In this document: positions 1 through 12,904 of the stretch, piece by piece
Layout: each line of letters starts with the position of its first letter
How positions within the stretch are numbered: the stretch's first letter is position 1
Origin: Candidatus Latescibacterota bacterium
GTDB taxonomy: Bacteria > JAAXHH01
NCBI GenBank assembly: GCA_022822725.1
Contig: JAJEAN010000002.1
Span: 1 to 64,000, forward strand
DNA length: 64,000 nucleotides
Reading direction: 5' to 3'
Made by a program: the position numbers and the translations under genes
The notes under the pieces: model-generated
Database searches by the model: none
Told to the model about the DNA's origin: nothing
Seen by the model: the letters and a program-made list of their open reading frames with translations, nothing else

Positions 1-269
1 CCAGGACGATAAGCGAAATGAAGCAGCAAGTCGCTGCCAGAGCCGGCGAGGACGAGGACTTCCGCGCCAGGTTGCTCGCGGATCCCAGATCCGTGATCGA
101 GGCCGAATTGGGCGTGTCCATTCCCGATCAGTTCGCGATTCACGTGCACGAGGACGGCGCCACCGCAGCCCACCTGGTTCTGCCGGTGTCAGACCGGCTT
201 ACCGAGGAGGAACTGGCCGAGGTTGCCGGAGGCGTTGACGTCAACTGGGATACCGTGAACATATCGTGA
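1..269 (+). CDS. NHLP-type RiPP precursor peptide 1 (5' truncated by window edge)
   Basis: Precursor with a nitrile-hydratase-alpha-like leader: EDEDFRARLLADP, then VIEAELGVSIPDQFAIHVHE, then a Gly-Gly export/cleavage motif (VAGG) and an 11-residue core, VDVNWDTVNIS. The internal ATG at 18 is not the true start. The codons before it (from base 3) read RTIS and match RTMS/KTLS near the N-termini of precursors 2 and 3, so the gene begins a few codons upstream of the window. It is the first of three tandem paralogues; the leader is strongly conserved and the core differs. The Gly-Gly is the expected cleavage site for the C39 peptidase encoded at 6928. The core has one Trp. Confidence 0.88.
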   Translation, partial: RTISEMKQQVAARAGEDEDFRARLLADPRSVIEAELGVSIPDQFAIHVHEDGATAAHLVLPVSDRLTEEELAEVAGGVDVNWDTVNIS

Positions 270-364
270 CTGGCATGCCGTGTCGGAGCAACCAGCATTG
301 AATCCGGTGGCAACCGCCAGTCGCGCCGGACGAAGACCACCACCAAAAACCGCAGGACCTATCT

Positions 365-371
365 AAGGAGG
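365..371 (+). promoter_or_regulatory. Strong ribosome binding site of precursor 2
   Basis: AAGGAGG lies 10 bases before the ATG at 382 and fixes that start. Confidence 0.75.
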
Positions 372-381
372 AGCTTGGATC

Positions 382-642
382 ATGGCAACGAGGACCATGA
401 GCGAAATGAAAACGCATATCATCGCCAAAGCCGGCGCGGACGAGGACTTCCGGGCCCGGCTGATCGCTGATCCCAAATCCGTGATCGAGGCCGAGTTGGA
501 CGTGTCCATCCCCGAGCAATTTGCGATTCACGTGCACGAGGACAACGCGACTGGCGCGCATCTGACCCTGCCTGTGTCTGAAAGGCTTACGGAGGCGGAA
601 CTGGCCGAAGTTGCAGGCGGTGGTCAGTACCTCTGGGAGTAG
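382..642 (+). CDS. NHLP-type RiPP precursor peptide 2, very short core
   Basis: An 86-residue precursor with the same leader as its neighbours: SEMKTHIIAKAGADEDF at the N-terminus, IPEQFAIHVHEDN in the middle and LAEVAGG before the core. The core is only GQYLWE, then TAG at 640-642. In the same frame the next codons are ATG AAG ATA TCG TGA (MKIS, stop), which align codon by codon with the last four residues and stop of precursor 1 (VNIS, stop). The short core therefore looks like a nonsense-truncated version of an 11-residue core. Export and leader removal are expected through the ABC transporters at 6928 and 9128. The N-terminal extension relative to the 18-base internal start of precursor 1 shows how that leader begins. 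Confidence 0.92.
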   Translation: MATRTMSEMKTHIIAKAGADEDFRARLIADPKSVIEAELDVSIPEQFAIHVHEDNATGAHLTLPVSERLTEAELAEVAGGGQYLWE

Positions 643-751
643 ATGAAGATATCGTGATTCCGATGACCCGTCGGAGCAGCAAGTAGTGAAGCTGGTAGAG
701 CCTGTCAATCGTAACCCACGAAGGCCACCGTGAACAACGCAGGTCTCACTC

Positions 752-757
752 AGGAGG
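752..757 (+). promoter_or_regulatory. Ribosome binding site of precursor 3
   Basis: AGGAGG is followed by TACTATAATC and the ATG at 768, a 10-base spacing. Confidence 0.7.
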
Positions 758-767
758 TACTATAATC

Positions 768-1049
768 ATGGCAACCAAGACCTTAAGCGAAATGAAGACG
801 CAAATCGTCACCAAAGCCGGTGCGGACGAGGATTTCCGGGCCCGGCTGATCGCAGATCCCAAGTCCGTGATCGAGGCCGAGTTGAACGTGTCTATTCCCG
901 ATCAGTTCGCGATTCACGTGCACGAGGATGGCGCGACCGGCGCGCACCTGACCCTGCCGCCGTCTGAGCGCCTCACCGAGTCGGACCTGGCACAGGTTGC
1001 CGGAGGCGGCTGGCGAGATGAACTGGAAGACGCGTACAACAGCCAGTAG
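768..1049 (+). CDS. NHLP-type RiPP precursor peptide 3
   Basis: A 93-residue precursor with the conserved NHLP leader (KAGADEDFRARLIADPKS, VSIPDQFAIHVHEDG, LAQVAGG) and a 13-residue core, GWRDELEDAYNSQ. The leader is nearly identical to precursor 2, while the core shares nothing with the other two except a single Trp; it also has one Tyr. This leader-constant, core-variable pattern is typical of RiPP precursor families. It is the last of the tandem copies; the next gene is on the opposite strand and converges at 1138. Confidence 0.92.
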   Translation: MATKTLSEMKTQIVTKAGADEDFRARLIADPKSVIEAELNVSIPDQFAIHVHEDGATGAHLTLPPSERLTESDLAQVAGGGWRDELEDAYNSQ

Positions 1050-1137
1050 TCACCGATCCCGTAGTGGTTTCAGGTAGGCCAAACCAGCGTTTCTGCCTGC
1101 CGGGGACCTGAGAGGCATCATGGCCTGCTCAGCCGGT

Positions 1138-3096
1138 TCAGGGATGCAGGAAGGGCAGGTCATACTCCGGTGGGTTCAGCATAACCTCGAAGTTTTTCTG
1201 GCTGGCCGCATCCATCTGCATCAAAGTATAGACCAACGCCTGTCTGCCCTGTCCCAGCAGCGAAGCCAGGCGGTGGATCTCATTTTGCATGGCTTCGTCG
1301 AATTTACCCGTGGCGGGCGCCGGCACGCGCCGCGCGAGCCGGCGCCGCGTTCCTGCCGCACACTCCGCCATGGCGTCCCATTCCGGGTCGGCGGCCCCCT
1401 CAACCGCCATCCCCGTGACCCGGCGATAGGTCTGTACATAGCGTTCCAGAAATGACCGAAACGGTTCTTTGTACCGCATGTCGTTGATGAAGTGCCGGTA
1501 GGTCTGCCGCTGCCACTGCGAGCGTCTGGAAGGCCCTTCGGCAATACCGGTGAGGAAGAATGCCATAGGCAGGATGAAGCCGCCATACTCCCGGTTGATC
1601 CGCCGGTACAGATCGCCCATTCCCTCGACTGCATATTCCCCCTTTATTCGGTACTTGAACGCGTCATTGGGAAAAGCGTAGTAGAAGATCATGTCGCTGA
1701 GCGATTGGATATGCTCCGGGCGGTGGTCTATGCCCATCAGCCTCGCCAACTCGTCGTTGTAGAAACCGTAGTACACCACGTGGTCCCGCGTGCCGGGAGG
1801 TGAGTTCCCGTAGTAGAAGGCATTGTAGGCGGCGATGCGCGCTTTCAGGTTTCCGTGTATGCGTTGTTTAAAGTCGGGTTGGACAATCATTTTGTGAATA
1901 AACAACGCCTGCATCTCCGATATGTTCGGTGACCCTCCAATCATGGGGCGGGTGTAGCCGAGGAAGTAGACGTTGTTCAATTGCGGATTCAAGACGCCCA
2001 TGAAGCTGTCTCGGTACGCGTAGCGAAAGGGGTTCTTGCCGCCCAATGTAATCTCGGGGAGGCGCGGATGCTCGTCGCCGCCCGGTATGTATTCATCGAA
2101 ACGCCTTCGGAAGCCACGCCAGTTCACGGTTTTCTGCTCCAGGTCGATGGGGGTGCTTTTGGGTACGACGATTACCTGGCCCGTCCATAGCCACATGGCA
2201 ATGTCGTTCAACAGGTAGCCCCTGGCGATGGCGTCTTCCAGGTTCCCACCGAATTCTTTGCTGTACAGGTCGATGGGCCAATACTTGGTGATTACCGTGC
2301 CATTGGCGGGACCCGCAACGCCCGCACCGCCCGTACCGCCCGCAGCCTGTGGTCCGTTCCCACGCACAGTATCGGGGTACTGGTCTGCCAGCAGAAACGG
2401 CGGATCTCCTTCGCCGCCCGGTGGGCCGAAGGATACCGAGGCGAAATCGCGGTGAGAGAAATAGCGGAAGTTGTGAAACTCCAGCCGGGACAGGGCGACG
2501 ATCTTTCTTTGCTCGGGCGGCCCTATGGCAAGGACCTTGTCGATGGGCGTGAAGCCGTTGGTCCGCACGATGATTTTATTGTTGTTGGGCGCCAGCTTCG
2601 AGATCATGAGATTTGTCGAGTCGCCCATGGTGTCGAACACGAAAGTCCGGTTGGATACCCCGTAGTCGATCTCCTCGAGGTCGGCGCTGATGGGACGCTG
2701 AAAGCCGGTGGCCAGTACGACGTGCGTGGCCTTCAGGGTGTTTCCCGATGCAGTGGAGACCAGGCTGTGATCCGCGAAGTTGTCCACTCGGATCACCCTG
2801 TCCCGCACAACCTTGCGGCCATACTCCCGCTGCAGCCGCTGACGCATGGCATAAAACTCGTCGGCGGTGGGATGGTAGTCACGCTTGTATTGGGACACCA
2901 GGTCGAAGGAAAAGAAGCTGGTCTGATAGTCGGACACGAGGTCGAAATCCAGGCGTCCGGCAGCGCTCAACGCATCCCAGACGGTGTCTCCTTCCCCGGA
3001 GATACAGGTGAACTCGACACCGGTGCGCTCCAGCTCGCGGATCAAGGGAATCGCGCTCCATCCGAAACCGACGATGATGACATCGAATTTCTGCAT
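1138..3096 (-). CDS. FMO-like FAD/NAD(P)-dependent oxidoreductase, candidate RiPP-modifying enzyme
   Basis: A 652-residue flavoprotein. The N-terminus has a Rossmann dinucleotide motif (FDVIIVGFGWSA, Gly10/Gly12), and HVVLATGFQRP near residues 125-134 is the ATG-type motif of flavin monooxygenases and lysine/ornithine N-hydroxylases. A Pro-Gly-rich insertion (about residues 225-265, including GGTGGAGVAG) separates the nucleotide-binding parts. The last roughly 200 residues form an extra C-terminal region I cannot assign. It is the last gene of a minus-strand unit (5711 to 1138) facing the precursor genes. A role in oxidising the Trp/Tyr-containing cores is inference from position; a free-standing monooxygenase of a small molecule is the alternative. 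Confidence 0.75.
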   Translation of the reverse strand: MQKFDVIIVGFGWSAIPLIRELERTGVEFTCISGEGDTVWDALSAAGRLDFDLVSDYQTSFFSFDLVSQYKRDYHPTADEFYAMRQRLQREYGRKVVRDRVIRVDNFADHSLVSTASGNTLKATHVVLATGFQRPISADLEEIDYGVSNRTFVFDTMGDSTNLMISKLAPNNNKIIVRTNGFTPIDKVLAIGPPEQRKIVALSRLEFHNFRYFSHRDFASVSFGPPGGEGDPPFLLADQYPDTVRGNGPQAAGGTGGAGVAGPANGTVITKYWPIDLYSKEFGGNLEDAIARGYLLNDIAMWLWTGQVIVVPKSTPIDLEQKTVNWRGFRRRFDEYIPGGDEHPRLPEITLGGKNPFRYAYRDSFMGVLNPQLNNVYFLGYTRPMIGGSPNISEMQALFIHKMIVQPDFKQRIHGNLKARIAAYNAFYYGNSPPGTRDHVVYYGFYNDELARLMGIDHRPEHIQSLSDMIFYYAFPNDAFKYRIKGEYAVEGMGDLYRRINREYGGFILPMAFFLTGIAEGPSRRSQWQRQTYRHFINDMRYKEPFRSFLERYVQTYRRVTGMAVEGAADPEWDAMAECAAGTRRRLARRVPAPATGKFDEAMQNEIHRLASLLGQGRQALVYTLMQMDAASQKNFEVMLNPPEYDLPFLHP

Positions 3097-3170
3097 CGCA
3101 TCGCTCCAATTGGAAGACCGTGGACTCGGCGTAACGGGTTGTCAGACCCGGAATGCTGCTTCCGCCCTTT

Positions 3171-4544
3171 TCACCGGGGTTGCAACGGTATGCCGCCGGG
3201 GTTGAGGACGTAGTTGGGATCGAACGCCCGTTTCCACGCCACCATACGGGGCCACAGCTCCCCGTAGTGGGCTTGCCAACGTTCTTGATCGAAATCGACC
3301 CAGCCGGCCAGATAGCGCTTCCCACCGAATGCGACCAGGCGGTCGCTTGCCTCCGCCAGCGCCGGCAGCACGCCCTCCAGCTCCGGCTGTGGAAGCTCGA
3401 TCAGGATACCGAACCCCATCAACAACTCGCCGTCCGGGCGCATCAACAGGGGCGATCGGAAGAGATGGTTGCGAAAGGGACCGAGCATCACGCGCGAGGC
3501 GCGCGCTACCGAGCCGGGGAGATCGGTAAACGTCTCTTCCATGAACGGGGCAAAAGCGTCCCACGGCAGTATGCCCTCCATATTGGGATGGGCCTGCCCC
3601 CAGTCCTCGAACCAGTCCGAGGCGGATCGGCCTTCCATGCGGGTGACGTACTGCAATGTGGGGCGATCGTCGGTCCCCCGCAGATGGGCATAGTGCAGAC
3701 TTTCCAGGACCTCGTCCCGATTCGGGGGAACCGCGTCCCATTCTTTGGTCAGGTTCAACGTATATAGCCGCCGGGCGAACAGGTTACCGGTCGCCACATC
3801 CCACATGCTGCGGGCGAAGGGCAGACACCAGGCGTCTATGTACTGGAATCGCTCCCACCCGACAATCGACTCCGTGTCCTGCATGAAAGCAGCTACATCG
3901 TCGTAGACAAGCGAGAAAGTGCGCACGTTTGGGAGCACCTTGCGCAACCGGAGCCGGGCTTCCGTAATCACGCCGAACTGTCCCTGTCCACAACGTACGC
4001 AGTCGAAGAGCGTCGCATTGCTTTCGTGGGAGCAGCGCATAAGGCGGCCGTCGCCCGTAACGACCTCCAGCTCGGTTGCGCTGTCGGCCTGCGTGCCGAA
4101 CAGGTGCGTCGATTCGCTGAGGCCGGCCGTGGAGAGCGTCCCACCCACTGTTACGCCCAGGTGCGTCGTGAGCGCCATCGGCAGGTAGCCCTCGGCGAAT
4201 ACCCGGTGGACGAGGTCGCGCCACCGAACGCCCCCCTGGACGCGGACCTGCCCGCCGTCTACCGCATCGATCCGGTCCAGCCCCTTCATGTCGATCAGGA
4301 CGCCGTCTTCGCTCAGTGACTGGCCGCTTTGCGAATGGCGTGCCCCCTGGAAGGTGACGGGGCAAGCCTCCCGGTTGGCCGCGGCGATGGTTTCCGCTAC
4401 TTCCCGGGGCGAGGAGGGACGGGCGATGGCCCTGGGCCGTTTTCGTACAACACGGCCGAAGTCAAAGCTGGCCGCATCCAGCGCCTCGTCGCCGGTTTCC
4501 ATACCGGTCAGATCCATGCGGCGCACATCAGCGTCGCGGCGCAT
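3171..4544 (-). CDS. FAD-binding (PCMH-type) oxidase, cytokinin-dehydrogenase-like
   Basis: A 457-residue FAD-linked oxidoreductase. The N-terminal FAD_binding_4 region has RPSSPREVAETIAAANR and then FQGARHSQSGQSL. His70 in that stretch occupies the place of the covalently flavinylated His in cytokinin dehydrogenase (GHS...GQ). The C-terminus, HYGELWPRMVAWKRAFDP then LNPG, also matches the cytokinin-dehydrogenase ending. Such enzymes remove hydride to form C=C or C=N bonds. The ATG at 4544 follows AGGGAC. It sits between the unknown gene (stop 4650) and the FMO-like gene (start 3096) on the same strand, so they are probably one operon. Dehydrogenation of a RiPP residue is a reasonable hypothesis but unproven. 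Confidence 0.78.
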   Translation of the reverse strand: MRRDADVRRMDLTGMETGDEALDAASFDFGRVVRKRPRAIARPSSPREVAETIAAANREACPVTFQGARHSQSGQSLSEDGVLIDMKGLDRIDAVDGGQVRVQGGVRWRDLVHRVFAEGYLPMALTTHLGVTVGGTLSTAGLSESTHLFGTQADSATELEVVTGDGRLMRCSHESNATLFDCVRCGQGQFGVITEARLRLRKVLPNVRTFSLVYDDVAAFMQDTESIVGWERFQYIDAWCLPFARSMWDVATGNLFARRLYTLNLTKEWDAVPPNRDEVLESLHYAHLRGTDDRPTLQYVTRMEGRSASDWFEDWGQAHPNMEGILPWDAFAPFMEETFTDLPGSVARASRVMLGPFRNHLFRSPLLMRPDGELLMGFGILIELPQPELEGVLPALAEASDRLVAFGGKRYLAGWVDFDQERWQAHYGELWPRMVAWKRAFDPNYVLNPGGIPLQPR

Positions 4545-4550
4545 ATCAGC

Positions 4551-4620
4551 GTCCCTTCAGACGGCCTGTGTGAATCGACTGTCCCTTCCGAGGGCCTGCG
4601 TGAAACATCCGTCCCTGAAC
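4551..4620. repeat. 30-bp direct repeat in the intergenic gap
   Basis: Two diverged 30-base copies (4551-4580 and 4581-4610) start with GTCCCTTC and share GGCCTG and GTGAA at the same offsets. A third copy begins GTCCCTGAAC at 4611. They lie between the stop of the unknown gene (4650) and the start of the flavoprotein gene (4544). Confidence 0.6.
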
Positions 4621-4649
4621 ACGAACGAAGTTTGGTGCAAGGGCAACTG

Positions 4650-5711
4650 TCATGAGGTCCGCATTACGTCCATGGCGGCGTACCCCTTGACGTGGACGAC
4701 GCCCCGGTCTATGACCAGCTTGACATGATTGACGGTCTGACGAACCTTATACACGCCGTCCCTGCCGAAGAACATCTCCAATCCAGGCCATTCAGCCAGT
4801 CCGTCAACCCTGGCCGCCAGGCACCACCCCTTTTCGACCAGCCGGTCGAAAAGGACCTTCCATCCGGCAGGATCCGTCTGGTGCCACTCGATTGGACGGA
4901 ACAGCTCCAGACCAAGACGCGGAGACACGCCCTGGCCGGTTACGTCGATGCTCAGACCCGTCTGGGGTTTGACCAACCCGGCCAGATCCTGCAAGGCGGC
5001 GACAACCCTGGGTATATCTCCGTTCCACCTGAGCCGCTTCAACACTTCGGCGACCTGTTGGCGGTGAACCCCCTGGATGATCAACCGGATCGCATGGGTG
5101 GTCCTGCCCGGCATGACACCGGCCTGTATGACCATGCCGGATCCCGCCATGGCAGCCCACACCTCGTCCACCGGGCGCATGTCCACGACGCCCGTCCCCC
5201 AGCAGGCCGCGGACTCCAGCGCGGCAACCAGCCCGGCGGGATCGTCGTGGATGGCCTCGTGATTACGTGGGTCGTCCCGATCCGATGGATTCCGGGACAC
5301 GATGAAGATGCCCGGTGGACCGTGCCTCCCCGGGGTTGCCCGGGCCAGATCATATTCCAGGATAATCGACGCGCCCGTGCGGTTGAGCAATGAACGCGGG
5401 TCCTTTTCCTGTTTCGTGAGAAAAGTCCCCAGGCCCGGTCCCGCCAGATCAGGAGCGGACGCTTCGGTAAGTTCCTGGTAGAAGGCGGCGGTCCTGGAGC
5501 CGGGCGGCACCACCGCGGCGAAGTCGGCCATGGGGCTGGCGTCGCACAGATCGAACTCGAAGCCGAAGCGGGCATCGGCCATGCAGACAGGCAGTCGCGC
5601 TGTCAGCGCTTCCAACCGCTTCCAACCGGCGTCACCAATCAGCGCGTGCGGAAACAGACCGCGCAGTTCCTCCAGCAGGCTATACAGCGAACGATATTCC
5701 GCGTCGATCAA
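4650..5711 (-). CDS. Uncharacterised protein, first gene of the RiPP maturation unit
   Basis: A 353-residue soluble protein with no signal peptide or membrane segment and no family I can name. Visible blocks are an acidic segment FGFEFDLCDASPMADF, then SIILEYDLAR, GLSIDVTGQGVSPRLGLELF near the middle-to-end, and a C-terminal pattern W-x-V-L-x-D-R-L-V-E-K-G followed by VNHVKLVIDRG. The last pattern recalls uncharacterised proteins near other RiPP loci, but that is memory, not a search. The start is TTG at 5711, with GGAGGAGAG just upstream. It is transcribed away from the export genes and leads the two flavoenzyme genes, so a maturation or leader-recognition role is inferred. Confidence 0.6.
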   Translation of the reverse strand: MIDAEYRSLYSLLEELRGLFPHALIGDAGWKRLEALTARLPVCMADARFGFEFDLCDASPMADFAAVVPPGSRTAAFYQELTEASAPDLAGPGLGTFLTKQEKDPRSLLNRTGASIILEYDLARATPGRHGPPGIFIVSRNPSDRDDPRNHEAIHDDPAGLVAALESAACWGTGVVDMRPVDEVWAAMAGSGMVIQAGVMPGRTTHAIRLIIQGVHRQQVAEVLKRLRWNGDIPRVVAALQDLAGLVKPQTGLSIDVTGQGVSPRLGLELFRPIEWHQTDPAGWKVLFDRLVEKGWCLAARVDGLAEWPGLEMFFGRDGVYKVRQTVNHVKLVIDRGVVHVKGYAAMDVMRTS

Positions 5712-6034
5712 ACTCTCCTCCGGTCCGGTCTGTGTCCTGCCGGTTCAGTCATTTCGTGTAATGTAGATCGTTTTGAACATAAATTAAATGCCTTTATTTC
5801 ACATTTAAAGACCTTTCATCTGATGATATATGTCTTTAATATGAAACACCGGCATTATCGGATGATTTTACTATGACTATCGTACAGCGAAGTTGATCAC
5901 GGTGTAGTTCCATGTATCGGCGGAATGACAGACACCTGATTCGATACGGTTACCTCATATCTTGCTGCATCTTGTCTGGAGCACCATGACTCGTCCTTTT
6001 TCCTGTCGGGCGCGAGGCCGAATGGAGGTGTTAC
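5712..6034. promoter_or_regulatory. AT-rich divergent promoter region of the RiPP cluster
   Basis: This 323-base gap separates the maturation unit (minus) from the export genes (plus). Bases 5760-5880 are clearly richer in A/T than the coding DNA around them. They contain a perfect inverted repeat, TTAAAGAC at 5805-5812 and GTCTTTAA at 5832-5839, 19 bases apart, which could be an operator. I see no convincing consensus -35/-10 pair, and no gene inside. Confidence 0.5.
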
Positions 6035-6928
6035 GTGCTGTTTAACCGGATATTTCGCGAACGGGCACTGGCGCAGCGCGCGCGGCAAGAGCCGTTGGAC
6101 GACCGGTTGCAGATCACCGCGCCTCACGAGTGGTTGATCGTGGCCGGGCTGGGCGTGATGCTCTTTGCGCTGATCGTCTACGGCGTGCTGGGGCGGGTGG
6201 AGCGCACTGTCTCCTTTGACGCCGCGCTGTTTCCTCCCGGTGAACGCCACAACCTCGTCGCACCGGTGTCCGGTACGGTGACGGACGTTCTTGTGGGCGT
6301 GACCGACACAGTAGCCTCGGGCCAGCCCGTCGCCTACGTTCAGACGCGGGGAGGACATCATCGGGAATCCGTAGTCCTCGAAATCTTCAATGCCCTGGAG
6401 AAGAGCGGAAAGCTGGAGGACAGGGACCGGCAGGCGTTGCTGACCGCCCTGCTTGACGTCGGTCCGGACACGGAATCCGTGTCCCGTTCGGAGATCGTAA
6501 GTCCGCACGGCGGACAGGTCGTGGCGCTGGACCTTGCACCCGGACAGGTGGTGTCCTCCGGCGCCTCGGTGGGGCTGGTACGCACGACCGAAGCCGGCCG
6601 GCCGGAGGTCGTGGCCTTTGTTTCTCCCGATGACGCCGCGCGCATAAGGGCCGGCATGGAGGCACGCATCCGCGTTGGAACTTCCGGCGACGGAGAAGAG
6701 CGGTTCTTTTCGGGACGGGTGGCGGACGTATCCGAGCGAGAGGAATCGCCGCCCGGATGGCTGTCGGACCGGGGGCTGGCCATACCCCGGCGATCTTACC
6801 GGTTGCGCGTGGTCCTGGTAAATGACGAAGCTGATTTTCCAATGCACGAAGTCATGGGCGTGTCCTTACAAATCGTGCTTGGACACGCGTCCCTCGCGTC
6901 ACTGCTGGTGACAGGGGGTGGAGGCTGA
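6035..6928 (+). CDS. NHLM-type secretion adaptor (HlyD-like membrane fusion protein)
   Basis: A 297-residue periplasmic adaptor. A short cytoplasmic N-terminus is followed by one membrane helix at about residues 33-53 (WLIVAGLGVMLFALIVYGVL). Biotinyl/lipoyl-like hammerhead segments follow (LVAPVSGTVTDVLVGVTDTV and SPHGGQVVALDLAPGQVV). This matches the HlyD-like protein found with NHLP leader peptides, which links the ABC exporters to the outside. The start is GTG at 6035 with GGAGGT at 6024-6029. It overlaps the next gene by one base (TGATG), so the two are translationally coupled. Confidence 0.85.
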   Translation: MLFNRIFRERALAQRARQEPLDDRLQITAPHEWLIVAGLGVMLFALIVYGVLGRVERTVSFDAALFPPGERHNLVAPVSGTVTDVLVGVTDTVASGQPVAYVQTRGGHHRESVVLEIFNALEKSGKLEDRDRQALLTALLDVGPDTESVSRSEIVSPHGGQVVALDLAPGQVVSSGASVGLVRTTEAGRPEVVAFVSPDDAARIRAGMEARIRVGTSGDGEERFFSGRVADVSEREESPPGWLSDRGLAIPRRSYRLRVVLVNDEADFPMHEVMGVSLQIVLGHASLASLLVTGGGG

Positions 6929-9123
6929 TGCCACGACGGCCATCTCCGGCAGGGAACCGGCGGCGGGTGCGTACGCCTCTGATGCTGCAACAAGAGGAAA
7001 CCGAGTGCGGGGCGGTCTCCCTGGGCATTGTGCTGGCGTACTTCGGACGCTGGGTCCCGCTGGAGGCACTGCGCGAGGTGTGTGCGGTCAACCGGGACGG
7101 ATGCGACGCCGCCGACATTACCCGGGCGGCCCGCCAGTATGGGCTGGATACCCAGGGATGGCGAAAGGAGCCGGAGCAGCTGCGGGACATGGACCTGCCC
7201 ATGATCGTTTTCTGGGAATTCAACCACTTCATTGTGCTGGAAGGTTTCCGGGGACGGAACTACCTGGTAAACGACCCGGCCAACGGCCACCGTTTGATCG
7301 AGGAAGAGGAATTCGATCGGGGTTTCACGGGCGTCGTACTCAGCTTCCACCGCGGACCGGACTTTCAGACAGGCGGCGCCCGACAGGGCATCCTGCCCCG
7401 GCTCTGGCCGTGGCTCAGGGAGGTCACCGGACCCCTGGGTTTCGCGTTGTGTTGCGGATTACTGCTGTCGGTTCCCGCGCTTGCCCTTCCGCTGCTTCTC
7501 AGCGTCTTCGTGGACCGCGTGCTGAGTGGGCAGGAGCCCTCCTGGGCGACGCCGATCATCGTCGGGCTGGCTGTGGCCGGGGCCCTGGTCTATTTGCTCA
7601 CGTGGCTGCGCCAGCGCTGTCTCAGATTGCTCGCGATACGGCTGTCGCTGGACCACGCCTCCCGCTTCATCAGGCACTTGCTCCGTCTGCGCCTGGGTTA
7701 CTTCACGCAACGCTATTCCGGCGATCTGGCCTCCCGATTGCAGTTGATCGACGAAATCTCGGTGGTGGCAACCACGCAGTTCGTCGGCGTCATCATCGAA
7801 CTGATTTCCAGTGCCGTGTTCCTGGCGGTGATGTTCGCCTATGACCCGTTGCTGGCGATCGCAGTCGCCGGCCTGGGCGCGGCCAGCGCGGTGACGATGC
7901 GACTGATCACCCGTTCCCGTGTAGGCGAGAACCGCCGCCTGCAGCGGGAGCGGGGCAAGCTGCAGGGTATAAGCATGTACGGGTTGCGGGGCATGGACAC
8001 GATACAGGCGGTATCCGGCGAGAATGATTTCTTCGCACACTGGTCGGGCTACCAGGCACGGGAACTGGTGGCGCGTCAGCGGTTCGCCGAGCTTGGACAC
8101 GTAATCGCCTCGCTTCCCGGCCTGTTCCTGATCGCCAGCAACGCGGCGGTCCTGGGCCTCGGCGGCTGGCGCGTCATGGAAGGAGACATGACGTTGGGCG
8201 TGATGGTGGGATTCTACGTGCTTGCCGCCAACTTTCTGCTGCCCATCGGCAGGCTGGTACAATTCACGGACCTGTTCCAGATTCTGGAAGCCAACCTGCA
8301 ACGGCTCGAGGACGTCCTGGACGCCCCCAGAGACCGGTTTTTTCAGCAGCGTGACGACCAGCGCGCCCAGAAAAGCGGTGCTTTTGCCAGACAGCTTAGG
8401 CTGAGCGGCCAGCTCGAACTGCGAAACGTCAGATTCGGATACAAGGCCAACCGGGAGCCGTTACTGGATGACTTCAGTCTGATCATAGAACCCGGTCAGC
8501 GCGTCGCCATAGTCGGTCCCACGGGTTCGGGCAAATCGACGCTGGCCCAGTTGGCGGCGGGAATCCACCAGCCCTGGTCCGGAGAGATTCTGCTGGACGG
8601 GCACGCCCGGGCCGAGGTCCCACGGGATCTGATGACCAACTCCGTATCCATGGTGGACCAGCGCATCTTCCTGTTCGCCGCGTCCGTGCGGGATAACCTC
8701 ACGATGTGGAATCCGGAAATTCCCGACCAGTGGGTGGCGGAGGCCGCGACGGACGCGACCATCCACGAGGACATTCTGGCCAGGGCCTATGGCTACGACG
8801 CGCCGGTCGAGGAAGGCGGACGCAATTTCAGCGGTGGTCAGAGGCAGCGCCTCGAGATCGCCCGGGCACTGGTCGGCAACCCCTCGCTGCTGATCCTGGA
8901 CGAAGCCACCAGTGCGCTGGACCCGGTTACCGAGATGCGTATCGACGACGCCCTGCGCCGGCGCGGCTGTAGCTGCCTCATCGTCGCCCACAGGCTGAGT
9001 ACCATACGGGACTGCGACCTGATCGTAGTCCTGGACCGAGGGAAAGAAGTGCAGCGGGGCACACATCCGGATCTGATGGCCGACACCACGGGACTATACT
9101 ATCGGCTCATGGAAGCGGAGTAG
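6928..9123 (+). CDS. NHLM-type peptidase-containing ABC transporter (PCAT)
   Basis: A 731-residue exporter and leader peptidase. The N-terminal C39 peptidase domain has Gln21 and Cys27 in QQEETECGAVSL, His100 in NHFIVLEG and Asp116 in VNDPANG, so the catalytic set is complete. A six-helix membrane domain follows (about residues 165-430). The ATPase domain has Walker A GPTGSGKST near residue 530, signature FSGGQRQRLEIARALV near 634 and Walker B LLILDEATSALDP near 655. It should cut precursors after Gly-Gly and export the cores. It is flanked by the adaptor (one-base overlap) and the second ABC gene four bases downstream. Confidence 0.93.
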   Translation: MPRRPSPAGNRRRVRTPLMLQQEETECGAVSLGIVLAYFGRWVPLEALREVCAVNRDGCDAADITRAARQYGLDTQGWRKEPEQLRDMDLPMIVFWEFNHFIVLEGFRGRNYLVNDPANGHRLIEEEEFDRGFTGVVLSFHRGPDFQTGGARQGILPRLWPWLREVTGPLGFALCCGLLLSVPALALPLLLSVFVDRVLSGQEPSWATPIIVGLAVAGALVYLLTWLRQRCLRLLAIRLSLDHASRFIRHLLRLRLGYFTQRYSGDLASRLQLIDEISVVATTQFVGVIIELISSAVFLAVMFAYDPLLAIAVAGLGAASAVTMRLITRSRVGENRRLQRERGKLQGISMYGLRGMDTIQAVSGENDFFAHWSGYQARELVARQRFAELGHVIASLPGLFLIASNAAVLGLGGWRVMEGDMTLGVMVGFYVLAANFLLPIGRLVQFTDLFQILEANLQRLEDVLDAPRDRFFQQRDDQRAQKSGAFARQLRLSGQLELRNVRFGYKANREPLLDDFSLIIEPGQRVAIVGPTGSGKSTLAQLAAGIHQPWSGEILLDGHARAEVPRDLMTNSVSMVDQRIFLFAASVRDNLTMWNPEIPDQWVAEAATDATIHEDILARAYGYDAPVEEGGRNFSGGQRQRLEIARALVGNPSLLILDEATSALDPVTEMRIDDALRRRGCSCLIVAHRLSTIRDCDLIVVLDRGKEVQRGTHPDLMADTTGLYYRLMEAE

Positions 9124-9127
9124 GGTT

Positions 9128-12055
9128 ATGGTGGACGGAACACAGATGGACGGAACACAGTTGAACTCACTCTCCGAACTGGCGCGGATCCACGGGGATC
9201 GATTCGTCGGCGGGGGCAATCGCCCGATACGTCTGTCGGACCCGGACACCCTCTGGTTCGTCGCGGGGGGGACGGTGAACGTCTTCGCGACCCGGCTCAG
9301 AGATGACGGCACGCCGAGGGAATTCAGGCACATGCTCCGAGCCGGAGCGGGCCGGCTGCTCTTCTCCGTACCGGAGGAGGAGGGCCTGAGCGTTCTGGTG
9401 GCCAAGGGGTTGCCGGATACCGAGTTGCGTCGAATTCCACTCGACGCCTTGACCGGAGCCGGACTCGACACCGAGATTGTAGCGCAGATTGAAACCTGGG
9501 TGCGTGAACTCTCCGAGTCACTCGTCCGGGACGTCACCTACAGGCCGCGTGTAGAGCGCAGCCTTTCCCCGGGGAATACCGAGGAAATCGGCGACGGCGC
9601 CGCAATCTGCGCCAGGCACGGCGTGGTATGGATATCCAGCAAGGACGGCGACATCGAGTACCTGGGCACCGAGGAGCCGGACGGCGCCGGTTCGGTTCCC
9701 GTCACGCCCTTCAGCTGGATTGTACGCGCCCGGGCCGGCGAGGTGAGTGGAGTCGACACCGCGGACCTGCAGCGGGAAGGACGTCTGCTTACGACGCTCG
9801 CGGAATTCAACAGACTGGCGATGAGGGCCGACCAGACGAACCGGACGTTGCTGTTGGCCGACGTGTCCAACCTGCAGACCGCGAGTGCGCGGTACCGGCA
9901 AAGAATCGAGGAGGAAGCGCGCCGGGACCTGGTCAACGTGCTCGGCGGAACCGCCCGTCCCGCGGAGGAAGATACGGTCCTGTTGCGAGTCCTGGAGCGG
10001 ATAGGACGCCACGAAGGCATTCGCTTCCGGGCGCCGTTGCGATCGCGTCGCCGCGCGTCTCAAGACGGAGAAATCGCGCTTGAAGATGTGCTCAACGCAT
10101 CAAGCGTTCGCTGCCGCCGCGTTGCCTTGCGAGAACACCAGAGGTGGTGGCTGAGCGACAGTGGGGCGATGCTGGCCTCGCGCAGGCAGGACGGTTCTCC
10201 GGTCGCCCTGATTCCTGGAGCCGCGGGGCGTTACCGGATGGTGGACCCCCGGTCCCCGCGCTCGGTATCGGTCAACGCCCGTCGCGCCGCGACGCTGGAT
10301 CCGGCCGCCTACCAGTTCTACCGCCCGTTGCCCGGGGAACAGACGAGTAACATTGCCCTGCTGTTGGGCATGGTGTTCAACCGCGTTTGGGGCGACCTGA
10401 CGCGTCTGGCAGGAGCGGGGATTCTGTCGGGCCTGGTCACCCTGGCGCCAGGGGTATTGCTGGGTGTCTTCGCCAGCCTGATCCTGCCTTCCGGTGATTT
10501 GCGCATGCTGATTATGGTAGCCCTGGCCGTCGTATTGCTCGGCTTGACGCTTGCGCTGCTGCAGATGGTAAAAGGCACGGCCCTGATGCGACTGGAAGGC
10601 CGGGCCGCGGCGCGGATCGGCGCGGCCCTGTGGGACCGGATGCTGACCCTGCCCGCCACCTTCTACCGGCGGTTCACGGTTGGCGACCTGGGAAGCCGGG
10701 CCATGGGTTTTCAGCAGTTGCGGGACCAGGTGGCCGGCGTCGTTGCCGAGGCGCTGTTGTCGCTGGTATTCCTTTTTCCCGCATTCGCACTGCTGTTTCA
10801 CTACGATGCCCTGCTCGGGTGGCTGGGGCTCGGGCTCGGGGTGTTCTCCCTGGGCGTGACGCTTTGCCTGGGACTGCGACAGATGCCGCACTATCGCCGG
10901 GTACTGGCTGCCTCGCGCCGAATCACGAGTGTGCTGCTTCAACTGATCGGCGGCGTGGCCAAGCTGAGGGTGAGCGGTGCGGAAGCCTCGGCTTTCGCCA
11001 CGTGGGCCGCCGACTACCGGAAACGGAAACGCGCCGAGATGCGGCTGGGCGCGCTGAACGAACACCTGATCGCTTTCACCTCGGCCGCCCCGTTCCTCGC
11101 CGTGACCGCTTTGTTCGTCGCGGCCGCACACCTTGGCCAGCAGAGACTGGAGATGGGCAGCTTTCTGGTCGTCTATACCGTGTTTATGGTATTCTACAGT
11201 GCGGTGGCCCAGTTCGGACTGTCGTTTTCCGCCATTTCCGCCATACTGCCCACCGTCGAGCAGGCGGCGCCCATACTCAGGGAGCGACCCGGGAGGGCGA
11301 TCGCTGACGCCGATGCGCCCATGATCGAGTTGCGCGGCGAAGTGCGCATCGACCACGTGACCTTTCGATACACCGAGGACGGCCCCCTGATCCTGCAGGA
11401 TGTATCCCTTCACGCCCGTCCCGGCGAGTTCATCGCCCTGGTGGGGGAATCGGGCTCCGGCAAGAGTACCCTGCTCCGCCTGGCGCTGGGGCTGGAAAGT
11501 CCGCTGGCCGGCGCAGTACATTACGATGGCCACGACCTGGAGCGGCTCAACAGGCTGGCATTGCGCAATGGCGTGGGGATGGTGGTTCAGGACGCTTCAC
11601 TGCGCCCGCAGACGGTGCGGGACAACATCATCGGAACGGGCGACGACCTGACGGAGGAAGACGCGTGGCGGGCGGCGCGGCTGGCCAAAGTGGACCGTGA
11701 CATCTCGGCCATGCCGATGGGCATGTACACCGTGACTTCGGAAGGATCATCGGGGTTCTCCGGCGGGCAGGTACAGCGCATCATGCTGGCCGCCGCCCTG
11801 GTGCGAAATCCCTCCGTGCTGCTGCTGGACGAGGCGACCAACTGGCTCGACAACGAAACCCAGGCAAGCGTGATGGAGGAGATAGAAAGACTCTCGGTGA
11901 CGCGCATAGTCAGCGCCCATCGACTTTCCACAATCCGGCGGGCGGACCGGGTCTACGTACTGCAGCGAGGCCGGGTGATCCAGCAGGGCGGTTTTGACGA
12001 GCTCATGGCGGTGGAGGGTGTATTCCGGGACATGGCACTTCGGCAGATGACCTGA
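9128..12055 (+). CDS. NHLM-type second ABC transporter, ATP-binding/permease
   Basis: A 975-residue protein. About 410 N-terminal residues lack the C39 catalytic Cys and include a cyclic-nucleotide-binding-like beta-rich part. A membrane domain (about 415-700) and an ATPase domain follow, with Walker A GESGSGKST near 773, signature FSGGQVQRIMLAAALV near 876 and Walker B VLLLDEATNWLD near 896. This is the usual partner of the PCAT in NHLM systems, and the two ABC half-transporters may form a heterodimer. It ends the export operon; the next gene is about 100 bases away and unrelated. Confidence 0.9.
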   Translation: MVDGTQMDGTQLNSLSELARIHGDRFVGGGNRPIRLSDPDTLWFVAGGTVNVFATRLRDDGTPREFRHMLRAGAGRLLFSVPEEEGLSVLVAKGLPDTELRRIPLDALTGAGLDTEIVAQIETWVRELSESLVRDVTYRPRVERSLSPGNTEEIGDGAAICARHGVVWISSKDGDIEYLGTEEPDGAGSVPVTPFSWIVRARAGEVSGVDTADLQREGRLLTTLAEFNRLAMRADQTNRTLLLADVSNLQTASARYRQRIEEEARRDLVNVLGGTARPAEEDTVLLRVLERIGRHEGIRFRAPLRSRRRASQDGEIALEDVLNASSVRCRRVALREHQRWWLSDSGAMLASRRQDGSPVALIPGAAGRYRMVDPRSPRSVSVNARRAATLDPAAYQFYRPLPGEQTSNIALLLGMVFNRVWGDLTRLAGAGILSGLVTLAPGVLLGVFASLILPSGDLRMLIMVALAVVLLGLTLALLQMVKGTALMRLEGRAAARIGAALWDRMLTLPATFYRRFTVGDLGSRAMGFQQLRDQVAGVVAEALLSLVFLFPAFALLFHYDALLGWLGLGLGVFSLGVTLCLGLRQMPHYRRVLAASRRITSVLLQLIGGVAKLRVSGAEASAFATWAADYRKRKRAEMRLGALNEHLIAFTSAAPFLAVTALFVAAAHLGQQRLEMGSFLVVYTVFMVFYSAVAQFGLSFSAISAILPTVEQAAPILRERPGRAIADADAPMIELRGEVRIDHVTFRYTEDGPLILQDVSLHARPGEFIALVGESGSGKSTLLRLALGLESPLAGAVHYDGHDLERLNRLALRNGVGMVVQDASLRPQTVRDNIIGTGDDLTEEDAWRAARLAKVDRDISAMPMGMYTVTSEGSSGFSGGQVQRIMLAAALVRNPSVLLLDEATNWLDNETQASVMEEIERLSVTRIVSAHRLSTIRRADRVYVLQRGRVIQQGGFDELMAVEGVFRDMALRQMT

Positions 12056-12154
12056 CCCGAGACGTCGCGACGCCTTGACCGGCACGCTTCGCGATGTATC
12101 TTCGCAAGACCGGGCACTGGCCACTTCCACTTGCCAACACAACCGATTCACCTC

Positions 12155-12904
12155 ATGAATCCATCCGGATTCCAGACCTTCGGGACCCCGCACCTCGTCG
12201 TGATGGGCCTGACCCTGGTCCTTCCCTTCGTGCTATCGGGAATCGCACGGAAAACCGGGGATCGCCGAACCGCAAAAGCGATCGCGTATCTGCTCGCCGC
12301 CATGCTCCTGGTCAACGATATTACGGCCGGGGGATACCGCCTCCTGCAGTCCGGTCCGGATTACTTCATCCGAAACTACCTGCCGCTGCACGTCTGCGGC
12401 GTCGCGAACCTGGTCACGGCCGCTACCCTCATCTTCCGCAGTCGGCGAACTTACGAGATCGCCTACTTCTGGGGGCTTGTCGGTTCCGCCAACGCCGTGA
12501 TCACCCCGGGCGCCATTGAGACCGGCTTCCCTTCATGGCGTTTCTTCCAGTATTTCATCATTCATTCAGGAATCGTGGTGGGTGTCCTGTACGCTACATG
12601 GGGCCTGGGCATGCGGCCCACACCGGGCGGACTCTTCCGCGCATTCGTCGCCCTGAATGTGTTCGCCGTCGTCGTGGGTATCATCAACCTGTTCCTGGAG
12701 TCCAATTACATGTACCTCTCGAGGCCGCCCTGGGGTACGGTTTCGCCCTTCTTCTTCGCGCCGTGGCCCTGGTACATTTTCATCCTCGACGTGCTCGCGC
12801 TTGCCATGTTCTTCGCAGTGTACCTGCCGGTGCACCTGTCACGAGGTCGAGCACCGCGGCAGGTTCGGCCGTCCTCCCGGTCCGTACAAGAGAAACCAGG
12901 CTAG
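12155..12904 (+). CDS. TIGR02206-type (YwaF-like) integral membrane protein
   Basis: About 249 residues with six or seven hydrophobic helices. Conserved pieces are FGTPHLVVMGLTLVLP, YLPLHVCGVANLVTA, FWGLVGSANAVITP and FFQYFIIHSGIVVGVLY, which match the TIGR02206/YwaF membrane family of unknown function. I prefer the ATG at 12155; an in-frame TTG at 12131 would add eight residues without a visible Shine-Dalgarno site. Its stop overlaps the stop of the converging gene at 12901 (shared CTAG). Confidence 0.75.
   Translation: MNPSGFQTFGTPHLVVMGLTLVLPFVLSGIARKTGDRRTAKAIAYLLAAMLLVNDITAGGYRLLQSGPDYFIRNYLPLHVCGVANLVTAATLIFRSRRTYEIAYFWGLVGSANAVITPGAIETGFPSWRFFQYFIIHSGIVVGVLYATWGLGMRPTPGGLFRAFVALNVFAVVVGIINLFLESNYMYLSRPPWGTVSPFFFAPWPWYIFILDVLALAMFFAVYLPVHLSRGRAPRQVRPSSRSVQEKPG

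What the first reader, a model, noticed from the sequence alone, without database searches (positions are those of the whole stretch)
1..12055. RiPP cluster with NHLP leaders, NHLM export and only flavoenzymes plus an unknown protein as maturation candidates
Seen: three precursors with a near-identical leader and different 6-13 residue cores after Gly-Gly; a complete NHLM export set; and, convergent to the precursors, an FMO-like enzyme, a cytokinin-dehydrogenase-like oxidase and an unassigned 353-residue protein. Known: NHLP precursors usually go with LanM, YcaO, radical-SAM or similar enzymes. None is present in the visible part. Inference: a RiPP class made by flavin-dependent oxidation of Trp/Tyr-containing short cores. 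The cluster may continue to the left of the window.
Basis: partly seen in the sequence, partly recalled or inferred. Interest (0 to 1): 0.85.

Follow-up and report, generated by a model that had tools for sequence, protein, structure and literature searches.

The report
Proteusin peptide cluster with AetF-type halogenase
A bacterium carries a complete 12-kb gene island for a small secreted peptide whose single tryptophan is probably halogenated by a self-sufficient flavin enzyme related to AetF, a pairing of enzyme and peptide system that I found described in none of the papers I could search.

Summary
In detail: three NHLP (proteusin) precursors, an NHLM export set and three convergent genes (1-12055). 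[quoted passage not shown] It keeps the catalytic Lys258 and Glu200 but has lost all four residues that hold free tryptophan, which fits a peptide substrate. Every core has exactly one Trp. The cluster is complete: its left edge overlaps another contig of the same genome by 133 identical bases, and the genes flanking the island are direct neighbours in 9 of 9 relatives, so no LanM, YcaO or radical-SAM gene is hidden on the left. Related clusters occur in two Acidobacteriota MAGs. The 353-residue 'unknown' has no Pfam, NCBIfam or PDB match, yet its relatives sit in RiPP-type loci of several kinds (LanM, YcaO, radical-SAM). The same genome has a separate srp cluster (YcaO, PF04820 halogenase, core LCCCW). 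Best reading: a halogenated-Trp proteusin parallel to the srp system, but built on a different halogenase class plus an oxidase of cytokinin-dehydrogenase fold. No chemistry is shown; halide, position and the roles of the oxidase and companion are inferred.

The parts
1..269 (+). NHLP precursor 1 (start codon 7 bases left of the window, in contig C9); core VDVNWDTVNIS
   Evidence: TIGR03793 75.5 bits; 133 identical bases shared with the end of C9
382..642 (+). NHLP precursor 2; core GQYLWE
   Evidence: TIGR03793 71.2 bits
768..1049 (+). NHLP precursor 3; core GWRDELEDAYNSQ
   Evidence: TIGR03793 65.9 bits
1138..3096 (-). AetF-type single-component flavin-dependent halogenase, 652 aa
   Evidence: E 5e-188 to AetF, 47% identity over 611 residues, K271 and E206 match Lys258 and Glu200
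3171..4544 (-). FAD-linked oxidase of cytokinin-dehydrogenase fold, 457 aa
   Evidence: FAD_binding_4 and Cytokin-bind; nearest solved relatives cytokinin dehydrogenases
4650..5711 (-). Uncharacterised RiPP-companion protein, 353 aa (TTG start)
   Evidence: No family or PDB match; relatives in many RiPP-type loci; 14 invariant residues
6035..6928 (+). HlyD-like NHLM secretion protein, 297 aa
   Evidence: TIGR03794 E 4e-23, below cut-off
6928..9123 (+). NHLM ABC1: C39 peptidase / permease / ATPase
   Evidence: TIGR03796 over cut-off, Peptidase_C39 E 7e-33
9128..12055 (+). NHLM ABC2: permease / ATPase
   Evidence: TIGR03797 over cut-off
12056..12130 (.). Right edge of the island; similarity to relatives resumes near 12068
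   Evidence: blastn against the empty sites; neighbour gene 12131-12904

Best explanation
A complete, probably laterally acquired proteusin (NHLP RiPP) cluster. The AetF-type enzyme, which carries FAD and should reduce it itself with NADPH, makes hypohalous acid and halogenates the indole of the single core Trp (bromination is the likelier of the two halides by analogy with AetF and SrpI) while the leader is attached. The oxidase of cytokinin-dehydrogenase fold then dehydrogenates or otherwise oxidises the core, most plausibly the same Trp. The 353-residue companion takes part in modification or leader handling in a way shared with other RiPP systems. The C39 domain of ABC1 cuts after Gly-Gly and ABC1/ABC2/HlyD export the short peptide. 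Shown: gene content, homology, kept and lost active-site residues, boundaries, related clusters. Inferred: the peptide as substrate, halide and ring position, order of steps, what the oxidase and the companion do.
For: AetF homology 47% over 611 residues; Lys258 and Glu200 kept, the four anchors of free Trp lost. One Trp in each of the 7 intact cores of the oxidase/companion type; P = 4e-7 for at least one Trp in all, paralogy aside. An AetF-like gene beside four NHLP precursors that all end in Trp in another genome, L027. Oxidase + companion + Trp cores recur in L048 and L050. LXXXXL at -12 to -7 in every leader, the motif that SrpI needs (PMC10858898). Island bounded on both sides. Complete NHLM export set.
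Against: AetF relatives can serve other substrates (two cyanobacterial ones lie next to PKS genes), and they too have lost the Trp anchors, so the loss does not prove a peptide substrate. L050 has the oxidase and companion without an AetF-like gene in the 14 kb read, so the modules are separable. In the window the Trp is not C-terminal, unlike in srp and L027. No chemistry, expression or product data.
Confidence: 0.62

Rival explanations
1. The AetF-type enzyme halogenates a small molecule or free Trp for another pathway and is in the island by chance or as a second function; the peptide is modified by the oxidase and companion only.
For: AetF-like genes in Moorena, Okeania and Saprospiraceae lie in PKS/NRPS-like surroundings; the oxidase/companion pair also occurs without a visible AetF-like gene (L050).
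Against: The island holds nothing else but RiPP genes; AetF-like plus NHLP recurs in L027; Gln500, Asp516, Ser523 and Lys587, which hold free Trp in AetF, are all replaced.
Confidence: 0.17
2. One reading: both flavoenzymes do plain oxidation (hydroxylation, crosslinking) of Trp/Tyr and no halogen is involved.
For: The fold is that of flavin monooxygenases; the second enzyme is an oxidase.
Against: Closest solved protein is a halogenase with 47% identity, and the lysine essential for halogenation, which is not general among FMOs (PMC10306068), is kept. Tyr is in only 3 of 7 cores.
Confidence: 0.1
3. The precursors of the island are also or mainly modified in trans by the YcaO and PF04820 halogenase of the srp locus of the same genome.
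For: All window leaders have the LXXXXL motif; the srp locus with YcaO and halogenase is present; SrpI tolerates leaders of other proteusins (PMC10858898).
Against: The window cores have no Cys and two of the three have no C-terminal or near-terminal Trp; the island has its own exporter and halogenase.
Confidence: 0.06
4. Barettin-type route: precursor 3 (GGG-Trp-Arg...) yields a cyclo(6-bromo-dehydroTrp-Arg) diketopiperazine by halogenation, Trp dehydrogenation and N-terminal cyclisation.
For: Barettin is such a compound and is thought to come from a sponge symbiont (PMC13027785); Phe372, thought to block C6 in AetF, is Met here; an oxidase is present.
Against: A Gly precedes Trp after the Gly-Gly site; no other core of this type has Trp-Arg; the source of this genome is unknown; no literature in the library links barettin to a RiPP.
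Confidence: 0.02

Closest known systems
srp proteusin clusters with the peptidyl brominase SrpI (PMC10858898)
   Same: NHLP leader with LXXXXL at -12 to -7, Gly-Gly boundary, short Trp-bearing core, flavin-dependent halogenase, paralogue of the companion protein in the srp-like locus of this genome
   Different: AetF-type single-component halogenase instead of a PF04820 enzyme; no YcaO; no Cys in the cores; Trp internal; extra oxidase of cytokinin-dehydrogenase fold
AetF, single-component Trp halogenase of aetokthonotoxin biosynthesis (PMC10306068)
   Same: 47% identity over 611 residues, catalytic Lys and Glu, same overall length
   Different: Residues that bind the amino and carboxyl groups of free Trp replaced; Phe372 is Met; lies in a RiPP cluster
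MibH (NAI-107) and MppI (brominated lanthipeptide) peptide halogenases (PMC12615548)
   Same: Trp halogenation of a ribosomal peptide
   Different: They belong to lanthipeptide pathways; described as flavin-dependent halogenases found through the MibH/SrpI line, not as AetF-type
Cytokinin dehydrogenases and other FAD_binding_4 oxidases
   Same: FAD_binding_4 and Cytokin-bind domains; His of the covalent FAD motif
   Different: The active-site Asp of plant enzymes (WTDYL) is Thr here and Asn or Asp in the two relatives; RiPP context

Membership tests
Proteusin / NHLP RiPP | NHLP leader over curated cut-off and Gly-Gly boundary | tested here: met
Proteusin / NHLP RiPP | NHLM export genes | tested here: met
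   ABC1 and ABC2 over cut-off, HlyD below
Proteusin / NHLP RiPP | Modified, exported product | not testable with these tools
   needs mass spectrometry
srp (SrpI-type) cluster | PF04820 halogenase in the cluster | tested here: not met
   The halogenase here is AetF-type; the genome's PF04820 protein is in the other locus
srp (SrpI-type) cluster | YcaO cyclodehydratase and Cys-rich core with C-terminal Trp | tested here: not met
   No YcaO in the island; cores without Cys
srp (SrpI-type) cluster | LXXXXL leader motif at -12 to -7 | tested here: met
   LTEEEL, LTEAEL, LTESDL (motif)
AetF-type single-component halogenase | Full-length homology to AetF | tested here: met
AetF-type single-component halogenase | Catalytic Lys258 and Glu200 | tested here: met
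   K271, E206
AetF-type single-component halogenase | Free-Trp anchors Gln500, Asp516, Ser523, Lys587 | tested here: not met
   F513, Q529, F536, F599: related enzyme, different substrate expected
AetF-type single-component halogenase | Halogenating activity | not testable with these tools
   needs enzyme assay
Cytokinin dehydrogenase | Domains and His of covalent FAD | tested here: met
Cytokinin dehydrogenase | Active-site Asp of the WTDYL motif | tested here: not met
   Thr in the window protein; role of the residue from own knowledge
Lanthipeptide, TOMM or radical-SAM RiPP | LanM, YcaO or radical-SAM gene in the cluster | tested here: not met
   Gene content and bounded island
ABBA prenyltransferase (for the 353-aa protein) | Profile similarity to PatF-type enzymes | tested here: inconclusive
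   hhalign probability 0.2%; ABBA subfamilies can be too divergent for this test (own knowledge)

The most novel reading that the evidence does not exclude
A distinct family of proteusins in which an AetF-type single-component halogenase and an oxidase of cytokinin-dehydrogenase fold jointly turn the one core Trp into a halogenated, oxidised (for example dehydro-) residue, with the 353-residue companion as a new enzyme family of general use in RiPP maturation.
Probability: 0.3. Interest if true: 0.8.

Novelty: new variant of a known kind. Interest (0 to 1): 0.62.

Why it matters
A peptide halogenase that carries its own flavin reductase function would need no partner enzyme, which makes it a practical tool. 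The RiPP halogenases named in the papers I could read (MibH, SrpI, MppI) are not described as AetF-type. The island gives enzyme, three natural substrates and exporter in one piece, and lets one ask how an AetF-type active site came to serve peptides. The companion protein marks a family that recurs in RiPP-type loci of several kinds and has no known function.

Tried and rejected
(1) First genome-collection scan with the window halogenase alone found nothing; repeated with an alignment to AetF it gave five loci. (2) ABBA-prenyltransferase idea for the 353-aa protein, from five apparent beta-beta-alpha-alpha repeats seen by eye: hhalign against nine PatF-family rows gave 0.2%, PDB profile search nothing useful; dropped. 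(3) AlphaFold2 of that protein from its single sequence: mean pLDDT 35, so no fold search. (4) Viral-contig search with the companion alignment: no stretch conserved enough. (5) Defence-system library: no match. (6) Promoter and terminator scans inside the cluster: no more hits than in shuffles. (7) Barettin hypothesis: kept only as a low-probability rival. (8) Two papers (PMC8780398, PMC12426817) are not held, so the published srp gene list could not be compared gene by gene.

Full report
OBSERVATION. Three precursors pass the TIGR03793 cut-off, ABC1 and ABC2 pass theirs, and the HlyD-like protein matches TIGR03794 below its cut-off. The window begins at base 1 of contig C3 of its genome. Contig C9, read backwards, ends with 133 bases identical to window 1-133; it supplies the missing start of precursor 1, a GGGAGG ribosome-binding site and a TTGACA-16-TATATT promoter-like pair (sequence, read by eye).

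BOUNDARIES. Left of the precursors, in C9, come a divergent alpha-N-acetylglucosaminidase (NAGLU) gene and RND efflux genes. In the nine genus relatives in which both were found, NAGLU and the gene at window 12131-12904 are immediate divergent neighbours on one contig, a few dozen to under two hundred bases apart. Similarity to the relatives resumes near window 12068. So the cluster is an island of about 12.4 kb at a site that is empty in the other species; the C3/C9 join is supported and no maturation gene is hidden on the left. The AetF-like gene is in this species only among 16 genomes of its phylum, which fits lateral gain (inference).

THE 'FMO'. It is AetF-type: E 5e-188 and 47% identity over 611 residues. 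With the numbering of the AetF structure paper (PMC10306068), Lys258 and Glu200 map to K271 and E206. Gln500, Asp516, Ser523 and Lys587, which hold the amino and carboxyl groups of free Trp, map to F513, Q529, F536 and F599; Phe372, thought to block C6, maps to M385. The other relatives examined have also lost the four anchors, including two cyanobacterial proteins next to PKS genes that resemble JamD (JamD likeness from own knowledge), so the loss fits a substrate other than free Trp without naming it. In a small tree the window enzyme groups with the two Acidobacteriota ones (100/99; 7 rows, long branches, midpoint root).

RELATED CLUSTERS. L027 (Acidobacteria MAG CO36386bin_12) has an AetF-like gene (54%), four NHLP precursors with cores LCDGCTPCW, ACFAHPCW, NCITSPPCW and ICEDAFRGW, a nitroreductase/ThcOx-like protein, and HlyD, ABC1 and ABC2. 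L048 (G016:C57, Vicinamibacterales MAG) has precursors with cores ACTWLAPGEC, GKHGGTTMPW and NYETW and a fourth, frame-broken gene (FGGMVPWD), then the oxidase (42%), the companion (35%), HlyD and an ABC1 cut by the contig end. The end of contig C28 of the same genome (L024) begins inside ABC2 and goes on to an RND gene and the AetF-like gene; that C57 and C28 adjoin is an inference. L050 (G017:C30) has a precursor with core NWCSPV, companion (40%), oxidase (30%) and ABC2; no AetF-like gene lies in the 14 kb read. The halogenase and the oxidase/companion pair are thus separable modules on Trp-bearing proteusins. That these MAGs come from sponges is my recollection of their labels, not tested.

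CORES. Each of the seven intact cores of the oxidase/companion type holds exactly one Trp. At the 1.56% Trp rate of the window's proteins, at least one Trp in all seven has P = 4e-7, and in the window's three alone 2.6e-3. Cores within a cluster are paralogues, so these figures overstate the surprise. The window leaders carry LXXXXL at -12 to -7, the motif SrpI needs (PMC10858898).

THE OXIDASE. It has FAD_binding_4 and Cytokin-bind domains; its nearest solved relatives are cytokinin dehydrogenases. The His of the covalent FAD link is kept in all three cluster oxidases, while the active-site Asp of the plant enzymes is not (roles of these residues from own knowledge). Dehydrogenation of the core Trp is my inference.

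THE 353-RESIDUE PROTEIN. No significant match in Pfam, NCBIfam, PADLOC or PDB (the best PDB hit, E 0.004 over 75 residues, is a mitoribosomal protein and vanishes with a profile). Relatives at 17-38% identity lie beside NHLP genes with a LanM and a radical-SAM gene (Nostoc plasmid), LanM genes (L069, L070, L071), srp-type YcaO loci (L010, L049, L072) and other NHLP-like genes (L051, L052, L068, L073, L074); in L066 and L067 it is fused to another domain that by eye resembles an alpha-toroid. Fourteen residues are invariant in 19 sequences. It looks like a general companion, not the source of the special chemistry.

THE SAME GENOME'S SRP-LIKE LOCUS. L010 codes for a precursor ending in LCCCW, the SrpE core (PMC10858898), a YcaO protein, a desaturase-like protein, an ABC protein, an NHLP-leader-fused protein, a companion paralogue and a PF04820 halogenase. 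The companion paralogue and the halogenase are found across most of the genus.

VERDICT. A complete, bounded proteusin cluster, most likely for a halogenated-Trp peptide; it works like srp but is not a member of it. No paper in the searchable library describes an AetF-type halogenase with RiPP precursors; that is an absence in one library only. The scan for AetF-like genes used two short motifs, so their rarity is not measured.

Noticed in passing
L010:887-16134 (G000:C9 about 1256387-1271634): A second proteusin locus in the same genome, srp-like: PF04820 halogenase, ABC protein, NHLP-leader-fused protein, desaturase-like protein, YcaO, companion paralogue, and a precursor ending in LCCCW.
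   Followed up: partly
L066:6734-9043 and L067:6792-9134: Fusions of the 353-aa family to a second domain that by eye resembles the alpha-toroid of squalene-hopene cyclases; in L010 a separate NHLP-leader-fused protein has a weak SQHop_cyclase_C match. A functional link between the two is possible.
   Followed up: partly
L029 (Nostoc sp. UHCC 0926 plasmid pn1, 432761-451534): RiPP-type region with no gene annotation in the collection: LanM, Nif11 and NHLP precursors, a radical-SAM protein and a companion homologue.
   Followed up: partly
L049:7698-11270 and 5600-6679 (G016:C19): srp-type locus whose precursor ends in LCCCG instead of LCCCW, so without the Trp that SrpI would brominate.
   Followed up: no
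L028:9995-11926 (Saprospiraceae): AetF-like enzyme without any NHLP gene in its genome, next to large multi-domain genes; substrate unknown.
   Followed up: no
L011:9211-9900 (G000:C4): The weak NHLP hits on contig C4 lie in one 230-aa frame with a CTLCSC motif, probably a true nitrile hydratase alpha subunit rather than a precursor.
   Followed up: partly
L050:4176-5390 (G017:C30): A frame that by eye resembles a CaiB/BaiF-type CoA-transferase lies between the oxidase and the companion in this related cluster.
   Followed up: no
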